Shown: positions 9,585 through 27,076 of the stretch, in pieces
Layout of the letters: every line of letters begins with the position of its first letter
How positions within the stretch are numbered: the stretch's first letter is position 1
Assembly: GCA_913061475.1 (NCBI GenBank)
Contig: CAJXUN010000033.1
Location: forward strand, 1 to 49,044
Direction of reading: 5' to 3'
DNA length: 49,044 bases
DNA from: an uncultured Colwellia sp.
GTDB lineage: Bacteria > Pseudomonadota > Gammaproteobacteria > Enterobacterales > Alteromonadaceae
Program-made: the position numbers and the translations under genes
Notes under the pieces: generated by a model
The model's input: only the letters and a program-made list of their open reading frames with translations
What the model was told of the DNA's origin: nothing
Database searches by the model: none

Positions 9585-9623
9585 CTTTTTAGCTACTATG
9601 ATGAAAACGGCATGTTTATGGCG

Positions 9624-10094
9624 TTACTCATCACCGAAGTTGGGTAGCACACCACTACGGCTATGCTCAAATATCAAGGATGTCTCTACTGTGGTCACTT
9701 CGTCTCGTGAGGTAATCGCATTGAATACAAATTGACGTAAGTGTTCACTATCTTTGACCGACATATGAATAAAGTAATCATAACTACCACCCATGTGATA
9801 CAAACTTATAATCTCAGGTAGTTTAAGTAGATCATCACGCAACTCGTTGACAATTAATTCAGAGTAAGGCTGAAGTTTAATCGCCGCTATCGCTTCGATG
9901 TTTCCGCCGATACTCTTAAAATTAATATCAATAAAAGCATGATTGATGACACCGCTATTCTTCATGCGCTTCACACGCTCTAAACAAGTCGATGGTGCGA
10001 TACCAATTTGCGCAGCTAATTCCTTGTTAGTAATATCGGCGTCTTTATAAAGCAAGGTGAGAATGCGTAAATCTATATCATCAAGTTTTTTCAT
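9624..10094 (-). CDS. Lrp/AsnC family transcriptional regulator
   Basis: The 156-residue protein has an N-terminal AsnC-type winged HTH (DDIDLRILTLLYKDADITNKELAAQIGI, with STCLERVKRM as recognition helix) and a C-terminal RAM/AsnC ligand domain (GGSYDYFIHMSV is the typical effector-pocket strand). Family members form octamers and respond to amino acids. It is divergent from the Mrp operon across 277 bp, so it might control itself, the operon, or both. A 12-bp palindrome lies 28 bp upstream of its start. Confidence 0.92.
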   Translation of the reverse strand: MKKLDDIDLRILTLLYKDADITNKELAAQIGIAPSTCLERVKRMKNSGVINHAFIDINFKSIGGNIEAIAAIKLQPYSELIVNELRDDLLKLPEIISLYHMGGSYDYFIHMSVKDSEHLRQFVFNAITSRDEVTTVETSLIFEHSRSGVLPNFGDE

Positions 10095-10122
10095 TAATTA
10101 CCTGTAAATAAAATACTGCTTA

Positions 10123-10134
10123 ATTTAGCTAAAT
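10123..10134. promoter_or_regulatory. Palindrome upstream of the Lrp-type gene, candidate operator
   Basis: The perfect 12-bp palindrome ATTTAGCTAAAT lies 28 bp before the regulator start codon. Lrp/AsnC proteins often bind such AT-rich dyads at their own promoters. The role is inferred. Confidence 0.4.
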
Positions 10135-10371
10135 ACTACACTCAATGTGAGCACTGAGACTAGTCTTATAGCTTTTTTTTTGAATTTTTGTTGTTAAATT
10201 GTTCATTAAGCCTGTTGTTCGATATTTTTAGCGACGTTTTATTATTTACCTTGAAAAATTTGTTTCAAAGCTTCATAACGATAATGTTTGCTAGTGTTAC
10301 GCCATTTGACATATTATGGCAATCTATTTGCTATCATTACTTCTAGTTAGAAAAATAAAAAGGCTTACTCT

Positions 10372-13164: not shown

Positions 13165-13511
13165 TGGAATTACTTTACGCAGCATGCGTTGGACTTATGG
13201 TGTCTTGTGGTGTGTTTTTAATATTACGAGCTAGAACTTTTCCGGTTGTATTAGGATTAACCATGTTGTCATATGCGGTTAACTTATTTCTCTTCTCTTC
13301 TGGTCGACTTAGTACTAACCAGGCCGCGGTCCTGGGGTACAGTGCGGAATATGCAGACCCTTTGCCGCAAGCTTTAGTATTAACTGCGATTGTTATCGGT
13401 TTTGCGATGACTGCCTTTGTGGTTATTTTAGCGATCAGAGGGCGAACAGATTTAGGTAGTGATCATGTAGATGGTCAAGCTCCCAAGAGTAATAAAAAGG
13501 TCAAAGTATGA
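13164..13511 (+). CDS. mnhC: Na+/H+ antiporter subunit C (MrpC)
   Basis: Small NuoK-like subunit of 115 residues with three membrane helices (ALVLTAIVIGFAMTAFVVIL is the conserved third one). It starts at the TAATG junction with the A/B gene and overlaps subunit D by four bases, which indicates translational coupling. Confidence 0.94.
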   Translation: MELLYAACVGLMVSCGVFLILRARTFPVVLGLTMLSYAVNLFLFSSGRLSTNQAAVLGYSAEYADPLPQALVLTAIVIGFAMTAFVVILAIRGRTDLGSDHVDGQAPKSNKKVKV

Positions 13512-15025
13512 TCCAGCATTTGCCATTTTTACCTGTTTTACTCCCCATGTTGGCTGGGGTGATTTTATTAATTCCGCCTTTTGGTAACAGCAAAACCAGT
13601 AAAAGAGTTACTTCTGTTATGTTGAGTATTGTGGCATTTATAGCTGCACTGGCTTTATTAATGAAAGTTCATGCCGATGGAACGCAAGTATATGCCATTG
13701 GTGATTGGAGTGCGCCTTTTGGTATTGTACTAGTGGCCGATCCTCTATCTACTTTACTGGTTTGTTTAGCGACATTATTGGGTGTTGTATGTGTGTTATA
13801 CGCTAGTGCAGGAGATGATGAAAAGGGCAGTTTCTTTCATCCTCTGGTACATTTTTTAATTTTAGGGGTCAGTGGTGCATTTTTAACCGGTGATGCGTTT
13901 AATTTGTTTGTATTTTTTGAAGTGTTATTGATTGCTTCCTATGCCTTATTAATGCACGGCGGAGATAAAAAAAATACTCGTGCTGCCTTACATTATGTGA
14001 TCTTGAACCTTGTTGGTTCTGCAGTGTTTTTGATTGCTTTAGGGGTTTTATATGGTGTACTAGGCACGCTGAATATGGCAGATATGGCGTTGAAAGTAGC
14101 TGTTCTTCAAGGCGACGATGTTTACCTAGCTAAAATTGGTGGACTGTTATTACTGATAGTATTTGCTTTAAAAGGTGCATTGTTACCGCTGCATTTATGG
14201 CTACCTAATACTTATGCGACTGCTATGCCTGTGGTCGCGGCATTATTTGCCATCATGACCAAAGTTGGTATTTACTCCATGATGCGAGTGTACACGCTAA
14301 TTTTTGGCAACGAAGCTGGGCAGTTGAGCCATATGGCACAAAGTTGGCTGTGGTGGTTAGCGATTGCTACTATTGTGATGGGGGCTGTGGGCGTTTTGGC
14401 CAGTAAAGATTTAAGAAAATTAGTGGCGAATTTGGTGATTGTGTCAGTCGGTACTTTAGTTGCGCTTGTTGCGGTTCAGACCGCAGAGGCTAGTGCAGCA
14501 GCAATCTATTACCTAGTTCATTCAACGCTTGTTACAGCAGCACTATTTATCTTAGCTGATTTGATTGCTCGTCAACGTGGTAAGGTGGCTGATCGCATTA
14601 CTGCAGCTACGCCTGTACATCAACCAATGTTGCTTGGCGTGTGTTTTTTAATAGCTGCTGTTGCGGTTATAGGCATGCCACCCTTGTCAGGATTTATTGG
14701 AAAAGTTTGGCTGCTTAAAGCAACCCTAAATGCTGAGTATACTTTTGTTTTTTGGGCGTTATATTTAATGGTGAGTCTGGCAGTATTGATTGCTATCGCT
14801 AAAGCAGGCAGTACTGTTTTTTGGCATCATCAAGGTAAGGTAGCAGAAAATACAAGGCAAGAGCGGGTTCATCCCGCGCAACTTATCGCGTTGATTATTC
14901 TCATTTCTGGAGCGCCACTGATGAGTGTTTTTGCTGGGCCACTCAGTGAATATGTCATAGGCGCAGCTTCCCAGTTACATGACTTCAATAGTAATATTAA
15001 TCTTATTCTTTCAGGGGGGCTGTAA
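13508..15025 (+). CDS. mnhD: Na+/H+ antiporter subunit D (MrpD)
   Basis: The 505-residue NuoM/NuoN-like ion-translocating subunit has about 14 membrane helices. The helix with FEVLLIASYALL carries the conserved glutamate, and LKGALLPLHLWLPNTYATAMP matches the lysine/histidine helices of the family. It pairs with MrpA as a proton-channel subunit. It overlaps subunit C by 4 bp and subunit E by 1 bp. Confidence 0.95.
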   Translation: MIQHLPFLPVLLPMLAGVILLIPPFGNSKTSKRVTSVMLSIVAFIAALALLMKVHADGTQVYAIGDWSAPFGIVLVADPLSTLLVCLATLLGVVCVLYASAGDDEKGSFFHPLVHFLILGVSGAFLTGDAFNLFVFFEVLLIASYALLMHGGDKKNTRAALHYVILNLVGSAVFLIALGVLYGVLGTLNMADMALKVAVLQGDDVYLAKIGGLLLLIVFALKGALLPLHLWLPNTYATAMPVVAALFAIMTKVGIYSMMRVYTLIFGNEAGQLSHMAQSWLWWLAIATIVMGAVGVLASKDLRKLVANLVIVSVGTLVALVAVQTAEASAAAIYYLVHSTLVTAALFILADLIARQRGKVADRITAATPVHQPMLLGVCFLIAAVAVIGMPPLSGFIGKVWLLKATLNAEYTFVFWALYLMVSLAVLIAIAKAGSTVFWHHQGKVAENTRQERVHPAQLIALIILISGAPLMSVFAGPLSEYVIGAASQLHDFNSNINLILSGGL

Positions 15026-15561
15026 TGCGCTTAGAAACAAGGTTTAAATGGCTACCTGCCCCTTTCTTGAGTCTGCTGTTATTTTTTGTTTGGCTATTAT
15101 TAAATAATAGTGCATCAGCGGGACATATTGTATTGGCGATTGTTTTAGCGATAGGTATACCACTGGTGACTAGCCCGTTTGCTACTAAGCAACCCTTAAT
15201 TATAAAACCAGGCTTGGCGTTTCGACATTTAATGTTAGTTTTATATGACATTATTACCGCTAATGTTCAGGTTGCAGTTTTGATATTAGGTCCTAATAAA
15301 AAATTAACTCCTGGCTTTGTTAAAGTACCTCTGGATTTAACTCACAGCATGCCTATTACTATTCTAGCCAGTACTGTGTCTTTAACTCCAGGAACAGTCA
15401 GTGCTGAAGTCTATCCTTTAAGAGAGTGTATCATTGAAGATAACGACTTAGAGCAGCGATTTTTACTAATACACGTATTAGATCTTAAAGATGAACAGGC
15501 TTTGATAAATACCATTAAACAACGTTATGAAGCTCCACTTAAGGAGATATTTCAATGCTAG
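15025..15561 (+). CDS. mnhE: Na+/H+ antiporter subunit E (MrpE)
   Basis: The 178-residue protein has two N-terminal membrane helices and a cytoplasmic C-terminal part with the family signature ILASTVSLTPGTVSAEV followed by LIHVLD. It is required for assembly of the Mrp complex in studied bacteria. It starts at a TAATG junction with subunit D and overlaps subunit F by 7 bp. Confidence 0.94.
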   Translation: MRLETRFKWLPAPFLSLLLFFVWLLLNNSASAGHIVLAIVLAIGIPLVTSPFATKQPLIIKPGLAFRHLMLVLYDIITANVQVAVLILGPNKKLTPGFVKVPLDLTHSMPITILASTVSLTPGTVSAEVYPLRECIIEDNDLEQRFLLIHVLDLKDEQALINTIKQRYEAPLKEIFQC

Positions 15562-15824
15562 AAAATGTAATTCTAATTGTTTATGCGATGATTGGTGTGT
15601 CGTTATTATTAAATTTATGGCGTTTATTAGTCGGTCCTTCAATACCAGATAGAATACTTGCGCTTGACACTATGTATATCAATAGCATTGCCTTGATCAT
15701 ATTATATGGCATGAGTATGGGTACTACATTGTATTTTGAAGCGGCACTGTTAATTGCCATGTTAGGTTTTGTAAGTACGGTTGCTGTATGTAAATACCTG
15801 TTACGTGGCGACATTATAGAATAA
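15555..15824 (+). CDS. mnhF: Na+/H+ antiporter subunit F (MrpF)
   Basis: Short membrane protein of 89 residues with three helices. The segment GPSIPDRILALDTM is the conserved MrpF signature. An SD (AAGGAG) lies inside the end of the subunit E gene. It is followed 10 bp later by subunit G. Confidence 0.94.
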   Translation: MLENVILIVYAMIGVSLLLNLWRLLVGPSIPDRILALDTMYINSIALIILYGMSMGTTLYFEAALLIAMLGFVSTVAVCKYLLRGDIIE

Positions 15825-15834
15825 GGATCAAATT

Positions 15835-16167
15835 ATGATTGAATTGATTATCTCAATATTATTACTAATTGGCGGTGCTTTTGTACTCGTTGGATCGATT
15901 GGTTTAGTGAAAATGCCTGACTTTTTTATGCGCCTCCATGGACCAACCAAAGCAACAACATTAGGTATGGCATCATTATTGATAGCCGCAATGATCTTTT
16001 TTAGTACTAAACAAGCAGGTGTAAGTGTAAATGAAATACTTATCTCGCTATTTCTACTCTTAACAGCGCCGATCAGTGGCTATATGATGATTAAATCCGC
16101 CATTCATCATAAGCTTGATAGTATCGAACGCACCAAAGGCACCGAAAATATCGAAGATGATGTGTAA
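15835..16167 (+). CDS. mnhG: Na+/H+ antiporter subunit G (MrpG)
   Basis: The 110-residue last subunit of the operon has three membrane helices with the family signature GLVKMPDFFMRLHGPTKATTLG. An AAGGA precedes the ATG. No clear terminator follows; the sequence runs directly into the left copy of the epmC repeat 16 bp after the stop. Confidence 0.94.
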   Translation: MIELIISILLLIGGAFVLVGSIGLVKMPDFFMRLHGPTKATTLGMASLLIAAMIFFSTKQAGVSVNEILISLFLLLTAPISGYMMIKSAIHHKLDSIERTKGTENIEDDV

Positions 16168-16182
16168 TTGTTATCACCTAAT

Positions 16183-16984
16183 AAGGTATTAGCTTAGTCT
16201 ATCTATGTCTAACATGGAGCTCTTTAATTTATAATTTTTTCTCCGATTTTTCATTGCTTTACTTGTATAACGCGTGAGTGAAAAATTTTCACATTTGGCT
16301 GTGCGGTAATGAACAACTAACTTAATATATTTTGATTTAATAAACATTGTTTTAATGAGCTAATTTGCATTTTTGAAGATACGTTTAAAGAAAAATATAA
16401 TACAAGGCTAATCAAAGGTAACAATAAACCGTTATACGCACCTGCGAATGAAACTTGTAGTTACCATCAAATCATTTTTGCTCATGGCTACTATGCCAGC
16501 GCCTTACATGAAATATCCCACTGGTGTTTAGCAGGCGCAGACCGACGACTACTGGAAGATTTTGGTTACTGGTATGTGCCCGATGGCCGAGACCAAAACG
16601 AACAACAAGCATTTGAACAAGTCGAAATTAAACCGCAAGCCATTGAGTGGGCGCTGTGTGTCGCTACGGGTAAAGACTTTGATGTTTCCACTGATAACTT
16701 GCTCGGTGACGGAGAAACCGACAGGTTTGCTTTTAAGGCTAAGGTCTTTCAGCAGGTGCTTGCGTATCTTGAATCGGGTTTTCCTGTTGATGCAGAGATC
16801 TTTATAGCGGTTTTAGCAAAATATTATCAACGTCAATGGCCATTAACCGCGAGTCATTTTCAATATCGCTCAGAGCAGAATAGTGCAATTTAAGAGATTA
16901 ATTAATGAAACAGTTTAAATTGGGTTTAGTGGTTAACCCCATTGCGGGTATTGGTGGTAGTGTCGCTTTAAAAGGTAGTGATGG
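16183..16984. repeat. Left copy of the epmC / NAD-kinase-like direct repeat
   Basis: This stretch matches 24847-25650 in the same orientation. The first part (16183 to about 16300, non-coding) is clearly diverged with small indels. The region 16300-16426 has a few changes. From 16427 to 16984 I find no difference over 558 bp. The match stops abruptly at 16984, where the sequence becomes nhaA-like. The direct repeats are 8,666 bp apart. Confidence 0.93.
16340..16893 (+). pseudogene. epmC: Start-less copy of EF-P hydroxylase gene epmC
   Basis: The coding frame is open and equals the intact copy at 25005-25559 apart from one Glu to Lys change and one silent change. One G is missing at the start (AATAAACAT here, AATGAAACAT in the intact copy), which destroys the ATG; an in-frame TGA lies just upstream. 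The first possible in-frame start is a GTG at 16576, which would give only 105 residues and lose the HEISH metal motif. I therefore regard it as non-functional. The body is too well preserved for old decay, which suggests recent copying or gene conversion. Confidence 0.85.
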
Positions 16985-17060
16985 CATCGGTGCCGCTGGT
17001 TATTATTGTTGGTTTAGTGGTTGGTATACAGCTTGGTGTGTTTGGCTGCCATCAATTTAG
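16905..17060 (+). pseudogene. Truncated NAD-kinase-like gene fused to foreign sequence
   Basis: The first 26 codons equal those of the intact gene at 25571. After base 16984 the frame enters nhaA-derived DNA in the wrong phase and stops at 17058-17060, giving a 51-residue peptide with no GGDGT motif. The SD and start are intact, so the peptide could still be translated, but no function is expected. Confidence 0.85.
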
Positions 17061-17314
17061 GCTGGGTAAAATTGCCGACTAATGTGAATTGGCGTTTGCT
17101 TTATGGCGCAGCAACACTATGCGGTGTCGGTTTTACCATGAGTTTATTTATCGGTTCGCTATCTTTCGAACAGTGTAATGACAGTAATCTTATTTTCCAA
17201 GATAGATTAGGTATTGTTATTGGTTCATTAATATCGGGTTTTTTTGGTTATCTCATTATTAAAGGCGGCGTCAATAATGCTGAAAAGCACGATGATTTGG
17301 AAAGCAAAGCCTGA
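16985..17314 (+). pseudogene. nhaA: 3' remnant of nhaA, Na+/H+ antiporter
   Basis: Only the C-terminal part of NhaA remains. One frame gives SVPLVIIVGLVVGIQLGVFG (16987 onward), and a second frame, from about 17042, gives LAAINLGWVKLPTNVNW, then LYGAATLCGVGFTMSLFIG and the end of the protein. The family has the two parts joined with a few residues between them, so a small deletion plus frameshift has occurred near 17040. About two thirds of the gene is missing on the left, where it abuts the NAD-kinase-like fragment. It is a broken gene left by a rearrangement. Confidence 0.88.
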
Positions 17315-17400
17315 TAAAAAAAACTGAAACGCAGCGTGATATAAATACGGTGACAGTAAAAGCTATGATATGACTTTATTGAATTTATTTTTAGCTGATA

Positions 17401-17432
17401 AAAAAGGCTTCTACTTATGTAGAAGCCTTTTT
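17401..17432. terminator. Bidirectional intrinsic terminator
   Basis: The stem AAAAAGGCTTCTAC / GTAGAAGCCTTTTT with loop TTAT is perfect over 14 bp. It serves the convergent nhaA remnant and the subtilase gene. Confidence 0.93.
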
Positions 17433-17452
17433 AACATTTAGTAAACTAAATT

Positions 17453-19951
17453 TTAGAAGTTTACCGTTACTTCATTTGAACAAGCTGTTGATGCATCACA
17501 GACTTGATAAATGAATTGGTTACCGGTTGTTCTACGTTCGCGATCACGATAAATCCCTGAATTTTCAACGCTATCGATCTTGATACCATTACGGAAAATA
17601 TCGACCATTTCGGCTGACGTGCCTTCCCAAGTAATATCTACACGTAAGCGACCTAAACGAGATTTATATGCACGTTTAACCGCAGCCTCAATACTTGCTG
17701 ATGAAACACTGACCAACATCGTTTCACTATCGCTTAAACCTTCAGCATCAGTAACAGTTAGTGTAACCTCATAGTTACCTGTTTCTGCAAAGCTATGAAC
17801 AGGGTTTTGCTCGCTAGATATTGCACCGTCACCAAAGCTCCAGTTCCAGCTAACCATATCGTTATTGCTGTCACTACTGCTATCAGTGAACGTGGTGGTT
17901 AACCCGTCAGCTTCATAGCTAAAGCTAACTTCTGGTGCACTAGGAAGCACTTCTCCAATACCAGTAATAGTAAGTGCCCAGTTGTTTAATGTGCCAGTAT
18001 CTGCCGCCGCATTATCAGCAACACTCAAGGTCCAGTCACCCGTTGCAACTTCGCCGTTGAAGGCAGAAGAACTAAAAGTGCTATCAATGTTATCGTCACT
18101 GCCACCTGATGCACTGTGTAATGCTGTAGATGTGCCGGTAGGGGAGGTTAAAGTAACGGTTAAATCGCCAATCCAAGTGTGCGTGATATTTACATAAATA
18201 TCCGATGCAAATACGGTCAGGTCATCTGCGACATTAATGACAGAGGTAATACCTTCGGCATTGTTATCTGGGATATCAACAACGTTGTCATTACTGTAGG
18301 TAAACTCATTCAAACCTTGTGGATTAACCATTAAGCGAACTGTAGATGTTTTAACTAATTCGCCACTGGTTGCCGTTACAGTAAAAGCATATTCGCCCCA
18401 CTGGGTTTCTGCTGTTGTTGGTATGGTTAGTTCAAACGTTGCACCAGGGGTTGCGGTAGTTGTTGAAAGTGTCGCACCACCTAATGAGTCAACTAAAGTT
18501 AAATTAACTTCACCATCCCACTCCGCAATTGAACCAACATCAAAACTATAAGTCGCAGTTTCACCAGCCACAATAGTACTTGAACTTGGTGTTGGTTTCA
18601 GCGTAAAGCCAGGTGTTGGATCTGCATCATCTAGCGCATTTTTAACATTTAAACGCTTACCTGATGCGGTTTTGCCAGAAAGTGCTGCGTTGTCATCACC
18701 AGAACTCATTAACAAGTCTTTCATTTCAATGGCGCTTAGTTCAGGATTAACTGACCAGGCTAATGCTGCTGCACCTGTAACATGTGGTGTTGCCATTGAG
18801 GTGCCTGAATATGATGCATAGCCGCCACCAGGTACCGTTGATAAAATATCTGAGCCTGGAGCACCTAAATCAACCGTGGTTAAGCCCCATTGTGAAAAGC
18901 TCGACATGTCATCTGTATGAGTTGTACTTGCTACGGCTAATACTGAGTCATGTGGATAACCAGAAGGGTAGCTGCTTTGGGCATCATTATCATACGCATC
19001 GTTACCAGCGGCGGCGACAAATAAAATGTTAGCTTCTTCAGAAGAGGTAATTGCATCAGATAGTGCTTGGCTAAATCCGCCACCGCCCCAGCTGTTATTA
19101 GTTGCACGTACGTTGACACCATTGTTTTTCAAATCAACAAAATAATCAATACAGGTTAGGGCATCAGAAAGGCTACCGCTACCTGATGCATCAAGGAACT
19201 TACAACCGATAATAGATACATTATGGTTAACACCTACAACACCTAAACCATTATTACCTGTGGCACCAATAGTGCCGGAGACATGGCTACCGTGCCCATT
19301 ATCATCCATAGGATCACCAATGCTAGTAATCGCACTGATACCGTGCATATCATCGATAAAGCCATTGCCATCGTTATCAATGCCATCACCGGCAATTTCT
19401 GCTGGGTTAGTCCAAATGTTAGCGATTAAATCAGGGTGAGTATGATCGACACCGGTATCAATAACGCCAACGACGACATCATGACTACCTGTAGAAATAT
19501 CCCACGCTTCAGGTGCGTCAATATCCGCATCGGCAACACCACCGGTTTGACCGGTATTGTTCATGCCCCAAAGGCTAGCGTAGCTGCTATCATCAGGGGT
19601 AACACTTGCGCTAACGATATAATCAGGTTCGGCATATAAAACTGCTGGATTTTTACGTAATTTTTTCAGCGCATCTTTCACTGAAACATTACTGTCCAGT
19701 GTAAATTTTGCCATACGACCTTTGTTTAAGTTGCGATATTTATCATCAACTTCATCGCGGTTTAAATCAGAAATCTTAGCTTTAACAGTGTTACGTGCAG
19801 CGCGACGATCGAATTTTGACGCACTGTCTTTATAGACCACAATAACCGAATCTGATTTATAAGTTGGATTTGCTGCTGAGCTTAATTCTATTGATGCATT
19901 CGCTAACAGTGGCAATAACGCTAACGTTAAGGCTGATAATTTTGCTTTCAT
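17453..19951 (-). CDS. Secreted subtilisin-like serine protease with P and PKD domains
   Basis: I place the start at 19951: GGAG lies 6 bases before this ATG, and the product begins with a clean signal peptide (MKAKLSALTLALLPLLANA). An ATG at 19963 is the alternative. The 832 residues comprise an I9-type propeptide (about 30-110), an S8 catalytic domain with Asp165 (DTGVDHTHP), His220 (GHGSHVSG) and Ser385 (GTSMATPH), a proprotein-convertase P domain (about 555-665), a PKD domain (about 675-755) and a small C-terminal beta domain with two Cys. It should be exported and degrade proteins outside the cell. It is divergent from the curlin gene and lies within the repeat-flanked segment. A role in matrix remodelling is only inferred from position. 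Confidence 0.93.
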   Translation of the reverse strand: MKAKLSALTLALLPLLANASIELSSAANPTYKSDSVIVVYKDSASKFDRRAARNTVKAKISDLNRDEVDDKYRNLNKGRMAKFTLDSNVSVKDALKKLRKNPAVLYAEPDYIVSASVTPDDSSYASLWGMNNTGQTGGVADADIDAPEAWDISTGSHDVVVGVIDTGVDHTHPDLIANIWTNPAEIAGDGIDNDGNGFIDDMHGISAITSIGDPMDDNGHGSHVSGTIGATGNNGLGVVGVNHNVSIIGCKFLDASGSGSLSDALTCIDYFVDLKNNGVNVRATNNSWGGGGFSQALSDAITSSEEANILFVAAAGNDAYDNDAQSSYPSGYPHDSVLAVASTTHTDDMSSFSQWGLTTVDLGAPGSDILSTVPGGGYASYSGTSMATPHVTGAAALAWSVNPELSAIEMKDLLMSSGDDNAALSGKTASGKRLNVKNALDDADPTPGFTLKPTPSSSTIVAGETATYSFDVGSIAEWDGEVNLTLVDSLGGATLSTTTATPGATFELTIPTTAETQWGEYAFTVTATSGELVKTSTVRLMVNPQGLNEFTYSNDNVVDIPDNNAEGITSVINVADDLTVFASDIYVNITHTWIGDLTVTLTSPTGTSTALHSASGGSDDNIDSTFSSSAFNGEVATGDWTLSVADNAAADTGTLNNWALTITGIGEVLPSAPEVSFSYEADGLTTTFTDSSSDSNNDMVSWNWSFGDGAISSEQNPVHSFAETGNYEVTLTVTDAEGLSDSETMLVSVSSASIEAAVKRAYKSRLGRLRVDITWEGTSAEMVDIFRNGIKIDSVENSGIYRDRERRTTGNQFIYQVCDASTACSNEVTVNF

Positions 19952-20060
19952 TTTTTGCTCCATTTTTTATTTGCTATTTTAAGTTCATTTCCTAAATTAT
20001 TTTTAGCCCTTGATGACCGCTGGGCAGCATGCCTATATTTATTATTTTAATTTTATACGT

Positions 20061-20073
20061 CTATGGGATTACG
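20061..20073 (+). promoter_or_regulatory. Repeated motif CTATGGGATTACG, copy 1
   Basis: Differs by one base from the copy at 20612. It lies about 110 bp from the subtilase start. A binding site for a regulator such as the CsgD-type protein encoded at 23947 is possible but unproven. Confidence 0.3.
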
Positions 20074-20611
20074 CAACATTACTACTTTAATCATAAAAAG
20101 ATGGTTATGCCTACCAATATGGAATAAACACGACTTTATCATTACTGTTGGGCTATTTTTTGTCTGATTTTACTACTTTTTTATTAGGAAACTTTGACTG
20201 GTACTTTTTTACTACTATTGAGTTTGATGTTACTCAATAATCTTGGTTATATTCAATGTTCGTATTTAACGTCATGTTTTTAATCGTATTTATTAAATGG
20301 TAAATTAGGGTTATTTTTATTGTTTATAAAATAACGTAGAGTTTTCAATGCAACCTATTAAAGCTTTCTGAGATTTTTCTTCAATAGTAAGTCTAGAGTG
20401 TTAAAAAGCAGCTAAATGCTTATTTGTTACTGTTAACTTACAAAAAAGAGTGGGTAAAGCACGGTTTAATTATTTGTGCATCCGAAAGTCTTGGTTAGTT
20501 GAGTGTTATTAGGTAACGATTTTTCCGTTAACCTTTTAAAGCTCACTACAACATTATTTTAAGATTACGACTCGTTTTTCTAATAATACAGTTCGTTATT
20601 ATTGTTAAGCA

Positions 20612-20624
20612 CTATGGGAATACG
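20612..20624 (+). promoter_or_regulatory. Repeated motif CTATGGGAATACG, copy 2
   Basis: It lies about 95 bp before the curlin start codon, in the same orientation as copy 1. The resemblance to copy 1 is seen directly; the function is inferred. Confidence 0.3.
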
Positions 20625-20719
20625 AAAACTCCACGGAAGGTAAGGCATTGTCTACTTATCCATTAATAAACATTGTAAGTAGACTTTTTGCTTACATAAA
20701 ATAAAAATTGGGATATATC

Positions 20720-22174
20720 GTGAAACTTAATAAATCAATGATCACTTGCGCTGTACTTATGGCATTAGGCCTAAACCAAACGGCTTTTGCGGGTGAAGAA
20801 AGTAAGCAAGAAAATGAAGCAGTTATTATTCAGTCAGACATTATCGCTAATGCGTTAGGTAATGTGGTGGTGCTGTCACAAGACTCTACCTCAGGTACAG
20901 GTAAAGGTAATGAAACTATTGTTTTTCAAGACGGTGATGTAAACGGTACTGATTTTACTGTTGTTGGTGAAGGTAATGTTATTGAAATTGAGCAAACTGG
21001 CGCTGAAAATATAGCTATTGGCACTTATACAGGTAACAATAATTTACTGTCTGTTTTACAAGATGGTGAAATTAATGAAACATCAAATAACGTAACGGGT
21101 AATGAAAATACTGTTGATGTATCTCAGCTTGGTGCTGGCTATTTAGGTATTGGTAGTCGTGCGATCAATGAAGTAGTAGGCGATGGTAACGAGATTACTG
21201 TTGATCAAGGCGACGGCGGTCATTGGGCTATTAACAGTGAATTAACGGGGTCAAATAATAGTATTGATTTTATTCAAGATGGTACTTGGAATGAAACTTA
21301 CTTCAATAGCATTACCGGTGACGGTAACGAAGTCGAATCAATACAAGATGGCTATTGGAACGTTGCTAGAATTACGGCAATTGCAGGGAATGACAATGAA
21401 CTTGATATTGAGCAAGAAGGTGATCGCAATATAGTCACTATTGCTGCACTAGAAGGCGATGATAATGAAATTTCTATCGACCAAGAAGGTGATAGAAATA
21501 ACGTAGAGTCTAACCTCTATATAGGCGATGACAATGCTGTCGATGTTGCACAAAATGGCGCTAATAACCTGGCAACATTTGATGTTATTGGCGATGATAA
21601 TGATTTTAACTTCTCACAATCAGGTGATGGCAATATCAGTTACATGGGCACTTTAGGTCTCAATAATGAATATAGCTCTTTGCAAGTGGGCGACTTAAAT
21701 GAAAGCCATATTGTGAACTTTAACGGTAACGACAATGATATTAACGTGACACAGTCGGGCTCTGAAAACGTTTTAGTTTTAGAAGCTTCTGCTGATGATA
21801 ATTCATTAACCACTAGCGATAATGATATTGATGTGGTTCAAGCTGGTTTTGCTAACGACGCTGTTGTGACGTTAAGTACTATTCTGGATAGTAATGCTAA
21901 TACTATTGATATTGCCCAAACAGGTGAGTTGAACTCACTCGATATTCTCGTTGAGGGGAGTAATCATCAAATAGATATTGCACAAGTCGGCGATGAAAAC
22001 TTTATTACCGGTGAAGATGGCAGCGCTATGCTTATCGGTGGTGCTAATATTGCTTTCAATATTAGCCAAGTTGGTAATGGTAACCTTGTTGAGGGATCAT
22101 TTATTAGTGATTCTGGTTCAGTGTCTATTACACAAATGGGCGACTGGAACACTGCAGTCGTTGTGCAGCAGTAA
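20720..22174 (+). CDS. Giant curlin (amyloid fibre subunit)
   Basis: I choose GTG at 20720 (GGGA upstream); it gives a signal peptide ending NQTAFAG. A TTG at 20708 and an ATG at 20738 are alternatives. The 484-residue product has about 19 curlin units by my count, each close to GxxNxIxIxQxGxxN (for example NELDIEQEGDRNIVTI and NEISIDQEGDRNNVES). The Gln and Asn ladders are the amyloid core residues of CsgA/CsgB. E. coli CsgA has five repeats in 151 residues, so this is far longer; it is also very acidic. Only one curlin gene is here, so it may combine nucleator and major subunit, or a partner lies elsewhere. Secretion would use CsgE, CsgF and CsgG encoded next. Confidence 0.92.
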   Translation: MKLNKSMITCAVLMALGLNQTAFAGEESKQENEAVIIQSDIIANALGNVVVLSQDSTSGTGKGNETIVFQDGDVNGTDFTVVGEGNVIEIEQTGAENIAIGTYTGNNNLLSVLQDGEINETSNNVTGNENTVDVSQLGAGYLGIGSRAINEVVGDGNEITVDQGDGGHWAINSELTGSNNSIDFIQDGTWNETYFNSITGDGNEVESIQDGYWNVARITAIAGNDNELDIEQEGDRNIVTIAALEGDDNEISIDQEGDRNNVESNLYIGDDNAVDVAQNGANNLATFDVIGDDNDFNFSQSGDGNISYMGTLGLNNEYSSLQVGDLNESHIVNFNGNDNDINVTQSGSENVLVLEASADDNSLTTSDNDIDVVQAGFANDAVVTLSTILDSNANTIDIAQTGELNSLDILVEGSNHQIDIAQVGDENFITGEDGSAMLIGGANIAFNISQVGNGNLVEGSFISDSGSVSITQMGDWNTAVVVQQ

Positions 22175-22198
22175 TTGTTCATTGAATATAAATTAACT

Positions 22199-22219
22199 AG
22201 GGGCTTAAGGCCCCTTTTT
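22199..22219 (+). terminator. Intrinsic terminator between curlin and csgE
   Basis: The stem AGGGGC / GCCCCT is followed directly by TTTTT, 25 bp after the curlin stop and 13 bp before the csgE start. It would lower expression of csgEFG relative to the fibre subunit, giving a stoichiometry control inside one operon. Confidence 0.85.
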
Positions 22220-22231
22220 ATCGCTAATAAT

Positions 22232-22624
22232 ATGTCTAAATATATATGTTTATGCTTGGTCACCCTCTGTTTCTCATTCACTCCTATATGTCATGCTAAC
22301 AAAGAAGTCGAAATTGGAGGTCTGTTACTTGATAACACCAAGAGCCGTTTGGGTCATGATTTTTATTTTAAATTTAGTCAGTTGTGGCGTGATATACCCA
22401 ATACACAAGGCATAAATGTTCAGCTTACTGAACAAATTGTCCCCAGAGCAGGCACTAAACTTAACTTGTTACTTAATGGCCGGGTTATTTACGTTACCTA
22501 CTTTGGGCGTCGACAATCACCCGTTCAAGAAAAAGTAGAACAAGCGATATTCATTTTGATTGATGCAATGGCGAAAAGCCAATACGTTCGAGATAGTGTT
22601 GATATGGCAGGAAGTGGCTGGTAA
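22232..22624 (+). CDS. csgE: Curli secretion adaptor CsgE
   Basis: The ATG at 22232 opens the signal peptide (MSKYICLCLVTLCFSFTPICHA); the frame extends upstream to 22175 but would include the terminator hairpin. The protein is 130 residues. EIGGLLLDNTKSRLGHDFYFKFSQLW matches the CsgE signature, as does the end NGRVIYVTYFGRR. CsgE is a periplasmic ring that caps the CsgG pore and guides curlin subunits. csgF follows 17 bp later. Confidence 0.92.
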   Translation: MSKYICLCLVTLCFSFTPICHANKEVEIGGLLLDNTKSRLGHDFYFKFSQLWRDIPNTQGINVQLTEQIVPRAGTKLNLLLNGRVIYVTYFGRRQSPVQEKVEQAIFILIDAMAKSQYVRDSVDMAGSGW

Positions 22625-22641
22625 TTATAAAGGTAGTTGTA

Positions 22642-23058
22642 ATGAAAAAAATAATCTTAGCGTTGGTGGTTTACACCAGTGTAGCAAATTACGCATTGAG
22701 CTCAGAGTTAGTTTATACACCCATTAATCCTAGTTTTGGTGGTAGCGCATTAAATGGCAGCTTTTTGTTAGGTAAAGCACAAGCGCAAAATAAACATAAA
22801 GCGCCATTGACGCAAAAAAGCTTTGAAGAAAAAGTATCTGACGCGTTAGAGCGTGCAACACTCAGTGATATTGTTAGTAAGTACAAAGATACTGTATTAG
22901 GTGAAAATAATAATATTGATATAGGTGAAGACACTAGCTTTGTTAGTGGCGACTATCAAATAGATATTGTCGCTGCTAACAGCGATACCATCACGATACA
23001 AATCACCGATTTATTGAGCAATAAAATCACTATCATTGAAATACCGAAGTTTGGATAA
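22642..23058 (+). CDS. csgF: Curli assembly protein CsgF
   Basis: The 138-residue secreted protein has a signal peptide (to about 20) and then ELVYTPINPSFGG, the CsgF N-terminal segment that inserts into the CsgG pore, followed by a conserved Asn/Ala-rich part. CsgF links the secretion pore to curlin nucleation on the cell surface. An SD-like AAAGG precedes the start, and csgG begins 4 bp after the stop. Confidence 0.94.
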   Translation: MKKIILALVVYTSVANYALSSELVYTPINPSFGGSALNGSFLLGKAQAQNKHKAPLTQKSFEEKVSDALERATLSDIVSKYKDTVLGENNNIDIGEDTSFVSGDYQIDIVAANSDTITIQITDLLSNKITIIEIPKFG

Positions 23059-23062
23059 GCTC

Positions 23063-23848
23063 ATGAGAAAAATTATAATTTTAAGTCTTGTGAGCTTTTT
23101 GTCCGCTTGCAGTGCATTAGATCAGGCCAGTAAACTATTTCCACCAGAGCAGTCGTTAGCAACAAAAATGCTGCCTTTGGAAAGTTTCAAAGAGCTTAAA
23201 GCACTGCCGAAACCTAAAGGTGCGATACCTGTTTCTGTTTATGCATATCGTGATCAAACAGGGCAATATAAACCACAAGCCAATGTCAGCTCATTTTCGA
23301 CGGCTGTAACACAAGGTGGAACGTCCATTTTGATGCAAGCACTAAGTGACTCAGATTGGTTTTTGCCGGTAGAGCGGGAAGGTTTACAAAATGTATTAAC
23401 TGAGCGAAAAATTACCCGCGCAGCAAATCAAGCCAATAAAGCCACCGAGCATATTGAACTGCCACCGTTAACAACGGCAAAAATACTCCTTGAAGGCGGT
23501 ATTATCAGTTATGACTCCAATACTAAAACCGGTGGTTTTGGTGCCGAATATTTTGGTATTGGTGCCTCTGAGCTTTATCGTGAAGATCAGATCACTGTTT
23601 ACCTTCGCGCGGTTGACGTAAGAACCGGTCAAGTACTTGTGTCGGTATCCACGAATAAAAAGGTGCTGAGTCAAGAGCTGCGCGCAGGCTTGTTTCGTTA
23701 TGTCAGCTTTAAACGTTTAGCTGAGATTGAAGGCGGCTTTAGTGAAAATGAGCCGATGCATGTCTGTGTACAGCAAGCAATTGAAAAAGCGATTACGGAG
23801 TTAGTGATGAAAGGCATAGAGCGTAAAGTCTGGCGTGCTGAGACATAA
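23063..23848 (+). CDS. csgG: Curli secretion pore lipoprotein CsgG
   Basis: Outer-membrane lipoprotein that forms the nonameric curli export channel. The ATG at 23063 gives 261 residues with a lipobox (LSAC). Key segments are PVSVYAYRDQTGQYKP, the pore-loop region, the transmembrane hairpin area GGFGAEYFGIGASELYREDQITVYLRAVDVRTGQ and the C-terminal helix. The length fits the family (277 in E. coli). It is last in the operon, followed by a terminator. Confidence 0.95.
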   Translation: MRKIIILSLVSFLSACSALDQASKLFPPEQSLATKMLPLESFKELKALPKPKGAIPVSVYAYRDQTGQYKPQANVSSFSTAVTQGGTSILMQALSDSDWFLPVEREGLQNVLTERKITRAANQANKATEHIELPPLTTAKILLEGGIISYDSNTKTGGFGAEYFGIGASELYREDQITVYLRAVDVRTGQVLVSVSTNKKVLSQELRAGLFRYVSFKRLAEIEGGFSENEPMHVCVQQAIEKAITELVMKGIERKVWRAET

Positions 23849-23887
23849 TTGATAATATCGGTAGCCGTGCGATAAAAATTTCAAATC

Positions 23888-23915
23888 AAAGTCAGTGAAT
23901 ATCACTGACTTTTTT
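23888..23915. terminator. Intrinsic terminator between csgG and csgD
   Basis: The stem AAAGTCAGTGA / TCACTGACTTT is followed by a T run. It lies between two convergent genes and may act on both. Confidence 0.85.
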
Positions 23916-23946
23916 GATCTATGTGCTGTGTAACATATTGCTTTGA

Positions 23947-24639
23947 TCAATTAACCATCGCGGCCTCATTTTGTGTGCGACTAATCAGTTCAATACGGTT
24001 TCGTGAACTGGTTTTTCTAAAAATACTGTAAAGATGAGTTTTAACGGTATTAGGACTGATGTGGAGCTGATCTGCTATTTCTCTATTTTGAGCGCCTTTA
24101 GATACTAGGCCAATAATAGTTCGCTCTCGCTTGGTCAAGGTTGGGAAGATACTTTCAGTGTTTGCTTCAACAGGTTTGCGCTGCTGATTTTGTTTTATGG
24201 TTAGTAAATCATCAAGGGCTTTGTTCATCGTTGAACGTTTAAACCATGATTGTTCTTTCATGATAAAAGCGAGACCTTTTAATATGATGTCAGGTCGGTC
24301 ATTCTGATAAAATACTCCTTTAACGTTTGATAGTAAGGCTGTTACTTCACAAGTAATACCATCTGACGCATTAAATAAAATAGTCGTGTTATTGGCTGCT
24401 AGGTCAGCAATGTTATTGGGTAAACCTTTTCCTATTTGATAATCAAATAAGTCGATCAGCAAAAAATTATAGCTAAGCAAGCGCGATTTTTCAGGCAGTT
24501 TAGCAGCGCTCTCAATCTCTATATCACAGGCATTCATCAAGCCAGTAAAGCGATTAAATAACTTCACGTGGGACCGAACTGTATTATCAACTATTGGAGT
24601 TAATGCAAATGCTTGTTGTTTTGCCATTTCCGTTGACAT
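23947..24639 (-). CDS. csgD: LuxR-type regulator, CsgD-like
   Basis: The 230-residue protein has an N-terminal atypical receiver (LLIDLFDY and VKGVFYQNDRPDIILKGL match the CsgD pattern) and a C-terminal LuxR/FixJ HTH (TKRERTIIGLVSKGAQNREIADQLHISPNTVKTHLYSIFRKT). CsgD is the master activator of curli in enteric bacteria and its receiver is not a standard phosphoacceptor. GGAG lies 8 bases before the ATG. It is convergent with csgG and probably activates the curlin promoter; whether it also acts on the subtilase is open. Confidence 0.88.
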   Translation of the reverse strand: MSTEMAKQQAFALTPIVDNTVRSHVKLFNRFTGLMNACDIEIESAAKLPEKSRLLSYNFLLIDLFDYQIGKGLPNNIADLAANNTTILFNASDGITCEVTALLSNVKGVFYQNDRPDIILKGLAFIMKEQSWFKRSTMNKALDDLLTIKQNQQRKPVEANTESIFPTLTKRERTIIGLVSKGAQNREIADQLHISPNTVKTHLYSIFRKTSSRNRIELISRTQNEAAMVN

Positions 24640-24846
24640 AATTAATTCTCCATATTACTAACTGTTACCGTAAAAATTCATTAGCTAAAAGAGCTGGCAG
24701 TTTTATTACGTGTATGTGATATATTATCGGGTTGAAATTTAGCGGTCGATTAAATTATAATTTAACACTTAATGCTGAGTATCACGTATTTACCGCTTGC
24801 TTTAACGAGTTGGTAACAACTTTGTTACATTAAATTTACAATTGTT

Positions 24847-25650
24847 AAGGTACTCGCTTAGTTCATCTATGTCTAGCTTATAACTCTTCTATTTTTAAAG
24901 ATTTTTTGGCTTTTTCATCGTTGTACTGGTATGACGTGTAAGTGTGGTCTGTTCCATATTTGGCTGTGCGGTAATGAACAACTAACTTAATATATTTGGA
25001 TTTAATGAAACATTGTTTTAATGAGCTAATTTGTATTTTTGAAGATACGTTTAAAGAAAAATATAATACCAGGCTAATCAAAGGTAACAATGAACCGTTA
25101 TACGCACCTGCGAATGAAACTTGTAGTTACCATCAAATCATTTTTGCTCATGGCTACTATGCCAGCGCCTTACATGAAATATCCCACTGGTGTTTAGCAG
25201 GCGCAGACCGACGACTACTGGAAGATTTTGGTTACTGGTATGTGCCCGATGGCCGAGACCAAAACGAACAACAAGCATTTGAACAAGTCGAAATTAAACC
25301 GCAAGCCATTGAGTGGGCGCTGTGTGTCGCTACGGGTAAAGACTTTGATGTTTCCACTGATAACTTGCTCGGTGACGGAGAAACCGACAGGTTTGCTTTT
25401 AAGGCTAAGGTCTTTCAGCAGGTGCTTGCGTATCTTGAATCGGGTTTTCCTGTTGATGCAGAGATCTTTATAGCGGTTTTAGCAAAATATTATCAACGTC
25501 AATGGCCATTAACCGCGAGTCATTTTCAATATCGCTCAGAGCAGAATAGTGCAATTTAAGAGATTAATTAATGAAACAGTTTAAATTGGGTTTAGTGGTT
25601 AACCCCATTGCGGGTATTGGTGGTAGTGTCGCTTTAAAAGGTAGTGATGG
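24847..25650. repeat. Right copy of the epmC / NAD-kinase-like direct repeat
   Basis: It matches 16183-16984. This copy holds the intact epmC start and continues into the full NAD-kinase-like gene. In E. coli epmC is beside yfcL, mnmC and fabB, as here, so this is probably the ancestral locus. The adjoining stretch 24640-24846 is AT-rich and should contain the csgD promoter; I see no other structure there. Confidence 0.93.
25005..25559 (+). CDS. epmC: Elongation factor P hydroxylase EpmC
   Basis: Hydroxylates the beta-lysylated lysine of translation factor EF-P. The ATG at 25005 gives 184 residues, the usual YfcM length; a TTG at 24996 would add three. The iron-ligand motif HEISH (57-61) sits in ALHEISHWCLAGADRR, followed by DFGYWYVPDGRD and the conserved EQVEIKPQAIEW. 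No epmA or epmB is in the window. It is separated by 11 bp from the NAD-kinase-like gene. A nearly identical but start-less copy lies 8.7 kb upstream. Confidence 0.95.
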   Translation: MKHCFNELICIFEDTFKEKYNTRLIKGNNEPLYAPANETCSYHQIIFAHGYYASALHEISHWCLAGADRRLLEDFGYWYVPDGRDQNEQQAFEQVEIKPQAIEWALCVATGKDFDVSTDNLLGDGETDRFAFKAKVFQQVLAYLESGFPVDAEIFIAVLAKYYQRQWPLTASHFQYRSEQNSAI

Positions 25651-26704
25651 TGTTGGTATTGCTGAGCAAGCCATTACCCTTGGCGCTACGGCAAAATCTA
25701 ATGCAAGGGCCTCACTGGCCTTAGAAATTTTACTACCTTATAAAGACAATATAACTATTTACACAGTCTCTGGTGACATGGGCGAAAACGTAGCAAAAAC
25801 ACTCGGTTTTACCACTGAAGTGGTATATCAAGCTGCAAATAAAGTTACCACTGAGCGTGATACAGAACAGGCGGTAACTACACTGATTAATAACGATATT
25901 GATTTATTACTGTTTGCTGGTGGCGATGGCACTGCACGTAATGTTTGTCATATTGTCAATGATAAGTTTCCGGTGTTAGGGATTCCTGCCGGTTGTAAAA
26001 TTCATTCAGGTGTTTACGCGATCACACCTAAAGCGGCAGGCAGAGTGGTTGAGCTGATGATCACCAATCAATTAGTCAGTCTAACCGATGCTGATGTTAT
26101 GGATATTGACGAAAGTTTATTCCGTGAAGGTATCGTCAAAGCAAAGCGTTTTGGTGAAATGCAGGTACCATCAGAGTTACGCTATATTCAAGCCGTTAAG
26201 TCGGGCGGTAAAGAGTCTGATGAGTTGGTATTACAAGATATTGCCGCGGATGTGATTGCTAAAATGGATGATGAGTTATTTATTATCGGCTCGGGCTCAA
26301 CCACTGCGTTTGTTATGGAAGAGCTTGCGCTTGAAAATACCTTACTTGGCGTCGATGCAATATGCCAGCAAGCATTAATAGCGAGCGATTTAACTGAAGC
26401 TGACTTATGGCGGTTAATGCAGTCTTATAAACAAGGACAAATTAAGCTAGTGATCACTTTGATTGGTGGGCAAGGGCACATTTTTGGCCGTGGTAATCAA
26501 CAGTTAAGCCCAAGAATTATTCGTGCTATAGCAAAAGAAAATATTATCATCATTGCGACGAAAGCAAAACTGAACGCATTGCAAGCGCGTCCTTTAATTG
26601 CCGATACCGGTGACAGTGAGCTTGATATGGAATTGTCGGGTTATTTACCTGTTGTGACGGGCTATAATGACCAAGTACTATATCCCGTAGCTAGCCCACA
26701 ATAA
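25571..26704 (+). CDS. ATP-NAD kinase family protein (AcoX/PpnK-like)
   Basis: The 377-residue cytosolic protein has the NAD kinase fold. It starts with GLVVNPIAGIGG and carries the nucleotide-binding motif FAGGDGTARN (about 116-125), then GIPAGCKIHSGVYAITP, IIGSGSTTAFVMEE and a C-terminal beta region with GGQGHIFGRGNQQLSPR. This is the longer ATP-NAD kinase/AcoX-like branch rather than the approximately 290-residue NadK. The substrate is likely NAD or a related nucleotide, but that is family inference. It forms a pair with epmC, and its first 80 bp are duplicated at 16905. Confidence 0.88.
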   Translation: MKQFKLGLVVNPIAGIGGSVALKGSDGVGIAEQAITLGATAKSNARASLALEILLPYKDNITIYTVSGDMGENVAKTLGFTTEVVYQAANKVTTERDTEQAVTTLINNDIDLLLFAGGDGTARNVCHIVNDKFPVLGIPAGCKIHSGVYAITPKAAGRVVELMITNQLVSLTDADVMDIDESLFREGIVKAKRFGEMQVPSELRYIQAVKSGGKESDELVLQDIAADVIAKMDDELFIIGSGSTTAFVMEELALENTLLGVDAICQQALIASDLTEADLWRLMQSYKQGQIKLVITLIGGQGHIFGRGNQQLSPRIIRAIAKENIIIIATKAKLNALQARPLIADTGDSELDMELSGYLPVVTGYNDQVLYPVASPQ

Positions 26705-26754
26705 GACTATTGCAAAACTTAGATAAACGTATAATATTTTTTGTAAATATATTC

Positions 26755-27028
26755 GGGTCTGTTGATCTTTAGCGGTTAAATTTTGTTCGGCTCTTTAAAG
26801 ATAGTAAAGCGTTTTAATCGCGGCGAGTAGTGTGTAGCCTAGCATTCTAAGCAAATACTGCTCAACAAAGAGTAAAACGCTTTTAGCCGAATCCTTCGGA
26901 CAGCGTTTGTTGGTCATTTTTACGACGTTATTACCTTTTTATGTGGAACAACCACATGACAAAGGCTCTGCCTTGTATAGATACCCAACAAACTGCTGCA
27001 AAAACAATCTCGAAAGATCAACAGACCC
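26755..27028. mobile_element. 274-bp MITE-like element with 16-bp terminal inverted repeats
   Basis: The ends GGGTCTGTTGATCTTT and AAAGATCAACAGACCC are perfect inverted repeats. Inside are a nested dyad (TTCGGCT...AGCCGAA outside AAAGCGTTTTA...TAAAACGCTTT) and a hairpin ATGTGG-AACAA-CCACAT at 26941-26957. No transposase frame is present, and I see no clear target-site duplication. This looks like a non-autonomous element mobilised in trans. It fills most of the 372-bp gap between the NAD-kinase-like gene and yfcL. Confidence 0.75.
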
Positions 27029-27076
27029 TAAACAGGCCATGAATAGAATCATGCCTATATGACTTTGGAATTGAAT

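What the first reader, a model, noticed from the sequence alone, without database searches (positions are those of the whole stretch)
16183..25650. Curli and subtilase segment bracketed by direct repeats of epmC
The junction epmC / NAD-kinase-like gene occurs twice in the same orientation, 8,666 bp apart. Everything between (nhaA remnant, subtilase, curlin, csgEFG, csgD) forms a segment that homologous recombination could delete or duplicate. The fabB side matches the ancestral neighbourhood known from E. coli, so the left copy with the segment looks acquired. Because the left copy lacks a start codon, a crossover in the identical part would join the start-less left end to the right body: losing the island would also inactivate epmC. 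This would penalise loss of the matrix genes.
Basis: partly seen in the sequence, partly recalled or inferred. Interest (0 to 1): 0.72.

Follow-up and report, generated by a model that had tools for sequence, protein, structure and literature searches.

The report
Scar of a swapped ion antiporter
A marine bacterium appears to have swapped one kind of ion antiporter for another at a fixed spot on its chromosome, and the repeated gene piece that caught the eye is most likely the scar of that swap rather than a device that protects the neighbouring biofilm genes.

Summary
The repeat is real: epmC plus the first 80 nt of a NAD-kinase-like gene occurs at 16182-16984 and 24846-25650, with 558 bp identical, and the left epmC lacks its start codon. 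Of 251 family genomes with an epmC match (290 searched), only this one has two.

The reading changes. In all 16 other genomes of the genus (named matches: Cognaticolwellia) nhaA follows asnC, and in four the same subtilase-curli-csgD block lies between nhaA and epmC. So the curli block is the old resident. The newcomer is an Mrp-type cation/H+ antiporter operon (10372-16167) standing where the first ~286 codons of nhaA were; no other NhaA remains.

In 61 related loci with both borders visible, the asnC-epmC slot holds NhaA (31), Mrp (19), neither (10) or an nhaA piece (1), never both intact. A tree of neighbouring genes needs 7 switches. The left repeat looks like a scar of one: foreign sequence up to about 16293, recent duplicate beyond, then a nadk/nhaA junction sharing 4 bp.

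A penalty for losing curli is unsupported: relatives lack curli with epmC intact, and EpmC is reported dispensable in E. coli. Not shown: read support, a donor genome, or that Mrp replaces NhaA in function.

The parts
9624..10094 (-). asnC/Lrp-type regulator (name by eye from the sequence); left conserved border of the antiporter slot
   Evidence: 93-96% aa to genus relatives where visible, 75-88% to Mrp-type loci; genus-type nucleotide match ends at 10095-10103 in 5 of 6 genus loci compared, 10142 in G008
10372..16167 (+). Mrp/Mnh/Pha-type multisubunit cation/H+ antiporter operon, six ORFs; the newcomer. Ion not determined
   Evidence: NCBIfam PRK12648 for subunit A and PRK12666 for D, both over their cut-offs; Pfam PhaG_MnhG for G; C, E, F named by order and recall; nothing above 34% MnhD identity in 16 genus relatives; at best 86% in other genera
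16168..16293 (+). spacer that seems to have come with the Mrp operon: csgD-epmC type, but diverged from the resident copy
   Evidence: 16182-16341 is 126/160 identical to the right upstream; changepoint at 16293
16342..16893 (+). left epmC copy without start codon and with Glu to Lys at 16426; probable pseudogene
16427..16984 (+). 558-bp tract identical to 25093-25650
16905..16984 (+). first 80 nt of a duplicated NAD-kinase-like gene, ending in the junction with nhaA (shared ATGG)
   Evidence: 80/80 identical to the right copy; junction alignment
16981..17314 (+). nhaA C-terminal remnant, residues about 287-398, with an 11-nt deletion that breaks the frame
   Evidence: the only match to the NhaA model in the genome
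17453..19963 (-). subtilase with P-domain and PKD domain, linked to curli
   Evidence: Pfam; same place in 10 of 10 distinct complete curli loci seen besides the window
20708..22174 (+). curlin-repeat protein (start codon uncertain)
   Evidence: Pfam Curlin_rpt, 6 stretches
22175..23848 (+). csgE, csgF, csgG
   Evidence: Pfam CsgE and CsgF; NCBIfam CsgG is the best hit, 248 bits, below its cut-off of 505
23947..24639 (-). csgD-like regulator
   Evidence: NCBIfam PRK10100 is the best hit, 86 bits, below its cut-off of 250
25005..25559 (+). right epmC, intact; native copy
   Evidence: Pfam EpmC; followed by nadk-yfcL-mnmC-fabB as in 15 of 16 genus relatives; in G004 curli stands between epmC and nadk
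25571..26704 (+). intact NAD-kinase-like gene
   Evidence: Pfam NAD_kinase and NAD_kinase_C

Best explanation
The repeat is the scar of an antiporter exchange. The ancestor had asnC-nhaA-subtilase-curli-csgD-epmC-nadk, as its nearest sampled relative on the neighbour-gene tree still does (with one more gene after nhaA). A tandem duplication joined the 5' end of nadk to the 3' part of nhaA at a shared ATGG. An incoming Mrp haplotype then replaced nhaA and the first curli copy by homologous recombination, with crossovers near asnC and just upstream of epmC. The result is asnC-Mrp-epmC'-nadk'-nhaA'-subtilase-curli-csgD-epmC-nadk. Mrp would take over from NhaA, curli survives in the second copy, and the left epmC is decaying. 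Shown by comparison: which parts are old, which are new, where the breaks lie, and that NhaA and Mrp alternate at this slot. Inferred: the order of the two steps and that Mrp substitutes for NhaA.
For: nhaA follows asnC in 16/16 genus relatives (12, 4) and the curli block lies between it and epmC in four. Neighbour-gene tree: window sister to G001 (NhaA type), SH-aLRT 96. Only a C-terminal NhaA remnant in the own genome. No close Mrp in 16/16 relatives; Mrp stands between asnC and epmC in other genera, 15 of 20 stretches fetched. Slot census of 61 visible loci: NhaA 31, Mrp 19, neither 10, nhaA piece 1, both intact 0. 16 of 20 genomes fetched for their Mrp have no NhaA match. 7 label changes on the tree, at least 5 forced by starred branches. 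Left/right upstream 126/160 identical versus 546/549 in epmC, while six between-species pairs show no such contrast (0.68-0.84 versus 0.70-0.74). nadk/nhaA junction with 4-bp overlap.
Against: No sampled genome has the donor arrangement; the best MnhD match is 86% in 395 genomes. The Mrp tree puts G000 on a long branch with weak support (0.57). The 558-bp identity could also come from later gene conversion. NhaA and Mrp-like systems are not strictly exclusive: 4 of 20 Mrp genomes have a NhaA elsewhere, and six NhaA-type genus relatives (G001, G009, G010, G011, G012, G014) carry a distant MrpD-like protein (28-34% identity; best hits are monovalent cation/H+ antiporter subunit D models, below cut-off). 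In four genomes of genus g18 and in G161 no epmC was found in the Mrp stretch fetched. Reads were not available, so an assembly error or more tandem copies cannot be ruled out.
Confidence: 0.68

Rival explanations
1. One-step import: a linear Mrp-epmC-nadk' fragment recombined by homology at asnC and by illegitimate joining at its other end into nhaA (homology-facilitated illegitimate recombination). Later gene conversion made the two epmC bodies identical.
For: One anchored end and one microhomology end is the expected signature. The closest published parallel displaces effector genes and leaves immunity genes in Vibrio (PMC5361080, passages read).
Against: Needs a second event, because the body is identical while the upstream is 79%. 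The same paper calls the process several orders of magnitude rarer than homologous recombination.
Confidence: 0.2
2. One reading: the curli segment and left epmC were acquired together, and the start-less copy is kept because it penalises loss of the matrix genes.
For: The deletion logic is sound: a crossover in the identical tract leaves a start-less epmC. An EpmA-type gene is present, so the modification pathway is plausible.
Against: The curli block is at this site in relatives. csgG is missing in 10 of 17 genus genomes without loss of epmC. EpmC loss is reported to have no effect or be negligible in E. coli. A crossover upstream of 16341 would restore an intact gene (deduction).
Confidence: 0.04
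3. Assembly artefact: the true chromosome reads asnC-Mrp-epmC-nadk, as in sister genera, or carries the 8.7-kb unit in several tandem copies, and the assembler passed once through the loop.
For: The window is a whole 49,044-bp contig of an 88-contig draft, and 558 identical bp is a loop in an assembly graph (inference).
Against: The copies differ at the start codon, at four substitutions after 16293 and at 34 columns before it, and the nadk/nhaA junction is a sequence of its own.
Confidence: 0.07

Closest known systems
Gene displacement in situ (a non-orthologous gene replacing another at the same locus)
   Same: Two unrelated antiporters occupy the same syntenic slot in different species, in turn.
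   Different: Here a remnant of the displaced gene and a duplicated flank are still visible. The concept is recalled; the term is in 41 papers of the library, 8 seen as a listing, none read.
Effector displacement with orphan immunity genes in Vibrio T6SS clusters (PMC5361080, passages read)
   Same: An incoming module anchored by homology on one side displaces a resident gene and leaves a downstream remnant.
   Different: No effector or immunity genes; the flank carried along is epmC/nadk, and a second breakpoint lies just upstream of epmC.
asnC-Mrp-subtilase-curli-csgD-epmC loci of genus g38 (L119, L120; L120 matches the named Colwellia sp. 75C3 record L176)
   Same: Same gene order with Mrp in the slot and curli before epmC.
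   Different: One epmC, no nadk piece, no nhaA remnant.
asnC-nhaA-SPFH-subtilase-curli-csgD-epmC locus of Cognaticolwellia aestuarii (G001)
   Same: Right-hand part is identical in order.
   Different: Intact nhaA, no slot Mrp, no repeat.

Membership tests
Antiporter exchange (gene displacement in situ) | Same flanking genes, different occupant in relatives | tested here: met
   asnC on one side and epmC on the other; NhaA 31, Mrp 19, neither 10, nhaA piece 1 of 61 loci
Antiporter exchange (gene displacement in situ) | Occupant change not explained by shared descent | tested here: met
   7 changes on the tree of nadk, fabB and epmC, at least 5 forced by starred branches
Antiporter exchange (gene displacement in situ) | New occupant does the displaced gene's job | not testable with these tools
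   NhaA is a Na+/H+ antiporter family; the operon matches monovalent cation/H+ antiporter subunits; no assay, ion unknown
Homology-facilitated illegitimate recombination product | One homologous end | tested here: met
   asnC of the genus type to about 10100, Mrp-type intergenic beyond
Homology-facilitated illegitimate recombination product | Other end joined at little or no homology | tested here: inconclusive
   nadk/nhaA join at ATGG, but a second breakpoint lies near 16293, and a tandem duplication gives the same join
Acquired genomic island flanked by direct repeats | Segment between the repeats absent from close relatives at this site | tested here: not met
   Curli block present at the same site in G001, G008, G009, G016
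Acquired genomic island flanked by direct repeats | Integrase or tRNA at the border | tested here: inconclusive
   No tRNA in the window; the genes from the Mrp operon to fabB that were scanned gave no integrase, others were not scanned

The most novel reading that the evidence does not exclude
One chromosomal slot in Colwelliaceae is a repeated exchange site for two unrelated antiporters, NhaA and the multi-gene Mrp complex, and this genome is caught after a switch with its scar still open. The repeat left behind also makes the 8.7-kb curli unit deletable or amplifiable, so curli dosage could vary in the population.
Probability: 0.4. Interest if true: 0.5.

Novelty: new member of a known kind. 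Interest (0 to 1): 0.42.

Why it matters
It replaces a story about protected biofilm genes with a better supported one: a fixed chromosomal site where marine bacteria seem to swap antiporters, with breakpoints still readable. If the swaps track salinity, pH or temperature, the site would let one ask why a cell uses NhaA or Mrp, with several natural replicates (at least five switches on the tree) already sequenced.

Tried and rejected
Donor search: MnhD in 295 and then 395 family genomes (overlapping samples) gave no match above 86%; the Mrp block could not be placed beyond a weak 0.57 node. Mrp distances from G000 to Mrp carriers of other genera lie within or slightly above the range seen between such carriers at similar neighbour-gene distance, none below it, so a recent import from a sampled genus is rejected.

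Mrp-type upstream for the left copy: rejected. The left spacer resembles csgD-epmC spacers of the genus (right copy first, then G008) more than Mrp-epmC spacers.

Tandem-duplication remnants in G004, where curli lies between epmC and nadk: none recognised in the two gaps (one 16-residue csgE match at E 0.025, taken as chance).

Age of the nhaA remnant: two departures at 47 columns otherwise invariant in the genus, against 0-3 at 45-48 columns in the relatives; too few to date it.

For this I lowered the main confidence from 0.70 to 0.68 and the novel case from 0.45 to 0.40.

Papers: searches for Colwellia with NhaA, Mrp and antiporter, Colwellia with curli and csgA, and curli with Alteromonadales and subtilase returned no paper; the search for at least three of Mrp antiporter, NhaA, horizontal gene transfer and synteny returned 22 papers, 10 seen as a listing, none read. 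The search for homology-facilitated illegitimate recombination returned 49, 10 listed.

Not done: PADLOC, PHROGs, Rfam, solved-structure and structure-prediction tools, which did not bear on the question.
Full report
The observation. The repeat is present as described. Left copy 16182-16984 and right copy 24846-25650 align over 806 columns with 767 identical, and 16427-16984 equals 25093-25650 without a difference. The repeat holds a short upstream stretch, the whole of epmC and the first 80 nt of the following NAD-kinase-like gene. The left epmC lacks the G of the start codon, has an in-frame stop just upstream, and meets its next start codon only at 16576; it also carries Lys where the right copy and all 16 genus relatives carry Glu. 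G000 is the only genome with two matches among 17 of the genus and among the 251 with a match at E <= 1e-20 of 290 in the family sample.

Where it lies. The whole window is contig 33 of an 88-contig draft.

What is old. In all 16 relatives nhaA follows asnC: 12 seen, and G001, G009, G012 and G016 (in G012 the pair lies on another contig than epmC). In G001, G009 and G016 the order is asnC-nhaA-SPFH gene-subtilase-curlin-csgE-csgF-csgG-csgD-epmC-nadk; G008 is the same with only a remnant of the SPFH gene. In G004 the curli block lies between epmC and nadk. In G012 only csgD stays beside epmC and csgG is on another contig. In other genera the block also sits just before epmC, for instance behind Mrp in G147 and G229. 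So the curli block and the right epmC are the resident parts.

What is new. The Mrp operon has no close counterpart in the 16 relatives: their best MnhD-like matches are at most 34% identical. I scanned nine of these distant proteins: seven (from G001, G009, G010 twice, G011, G012 and G014) match monovalent cation/H+ antiporter subunit D models best but below cut-off, and two (G006, G016) match NADH dehydrogenase subunit M. Other genera have MnhD up to 86% identical. Of 20 stretches fetched around such matches, 15 show asnC, Mrp and epmC in this order; four stretches from genus g18 and one from G161 show no epmC. The window has asnC of the genus type, then Mrp-type sequence. The first ~286 codons of nhaA are gone, the remnant has an 11-nt deletion, and there is no other match to the NhaA model PF06965 in the genome. 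The operon matches monovalent cation/H+ antiporter subunits A and D above cut-off; whether it carries Na+ or K+ is not known.

A slot with two occupants. Of 116 loci given to the census (16 genus stretches, 20 chosen for Mrp, 80 named from the nadk scan), 6 showed no epmC and 12 repeated others; of the remaining 98, 37 were open on the asnC side, and 61 show both borders: NhaA 31, Mrp 19, neither 10, a piece of nhaA 1, both intact 0. Because 20 loci were chosen for Mrp, the proportions are not a survey. Of the 20 genomes fetched for their Mrp, 16 have no NhaA match and 4 have one elsewhere. On a tree of nadk, fabB and epmC (59 rows: the window, 36 NhaA and 22 Mrp loci; loci with neither, L212, G012 and most open ones left out) the label changes 7 times, at least 5 forced by starred branches, against a mean of about 18 in shuffles. 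The window is sister to G001, an NhaA genome, with SH-aLRT 96; a FastTree of nadk, fabB, mnmC and epmC groups it with G001 and G014, both NhaA genomes. These are trees of flanking genes, which may themselves have been exchanged.

How the scar formed. Two histories meet in the left copy. Upstream of about 16293 left and right differ at 34 of 112 columns; after it at 5 of 693. Six between-species pairs show about the same identity upstream (0.68-0.84) as in epmC (0.70-0.74), so the contrast between 126/160 upstream and 546/549 in the gene is not a matter of constraint. The upstream piece is of the csgD-epmC kind found in this genus; it is more distant from the right copy than G008 is. I read it as the end of the imported Mrp haplotype, from an unsampled Mrp-bearing relative that had lost curli. 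The body is a recent duplicate of the right copy, and its far end joins nadk to nhaA at ATGG, as a tandem duplication or an illegitimate join would. Two steps, duplication and then homologous import, explain all of this with ordinary events. A one-step illegitimate import followed by gene conversion is the main rival.

The proposed loss penalty. But a crossover just upstream of the start restores the gene; csgG is absent from 10 of 17 genus genomes (one of these is 66% complete) while all 16 relatives keep one epmC with an in-frame ATG (the stops flagged inside the match in four of them lie at the C-terminal end, positions 176-178 of 184). G142 shows how a block can be lost: a 46-residue subtilase scrap and a 19-residue csgG scrap remain between mnhG and an open epmC. 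In E. coli the hydroxylation is called negligible for function (PMC6544042, passages), and a strain lacking both L9 and EpmC grew as well as the one with epmC (PMC4399890, passages). An EpmA-type gene is present here, so the pathway is probably active, but nothing suggests a strong cost. The two histidines and the glutamate described as metal ligands in YfcM (PMC4231759, passages) have apparent counterparts in both copies (by eye).

Limits. No reads, no conspecific strain and no donor were available. The tandem copy number of the 8.7-kb unit is unknown. That Mrp takes over from NhaA is inferred from annotation and from alternation at the slot; exclusion is not strict, since four Mrp genomes keep a NhaA elsewhere and six NhaA-type relatives have a distant MrpD-like protein.

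Noticed in passing
window 17453-19963 and loci L023, L024, L025, L029, L031, L119, L120, L147, L149, L197: A subtilase with P-domain and PKD domain (domains seen in the window's copy) lies next to the curlin gene, on the other strand, in all 10 distinct complete curli loci seen besides the window. It may be a curli-associated protease. The separate csgG locus of G012 was not examined.
   Followed up: partly
L031 (G004) 9441-19663 after reversal: The curli block lies between epmC and nadk instead of before epmC, with csgD turned round; no remnants recognised at the borders.
   Followed up: partly
L114 (G142) 7050-7930 after reversal: Scraps of subtilase and csgG between mnhG and epmC: footprint of a deleted curli block.
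   Followed up: yes
L212, 8900-9460: An nhaA C-terminal remnant (residues about 304-373) with no Mrp in the slot of a Litorilituus MAG: a second genome with a broken slot nhaA.
   Followed up: partly
loci L021, L031, L036, L216-L219: An SPFH/prohibitin-like gene (name from recall) follows nhaA in these genus relatives; no match in the window and only a remnant in G008.
   Followed up: partly
window 24846-25007: The csgD-epmC spacer of the right copy is closer to G008 (128/153) than to the tree neighbour G001 (102/138), hinting at further recombination at this locus.
   Followed up: no
loci L065-L070, L079: Six genus relatives with slot NhaA carry a distant MrpD-like protein elsewhere, 28-34% identical to the window's MnhD.
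   Followed up: partly
window 26752-27031: A 26-nt imperfect inverted repeat with 228 nt between its arms lies between the NAD-kinase-like gene and yfcL.
   Followed up: no
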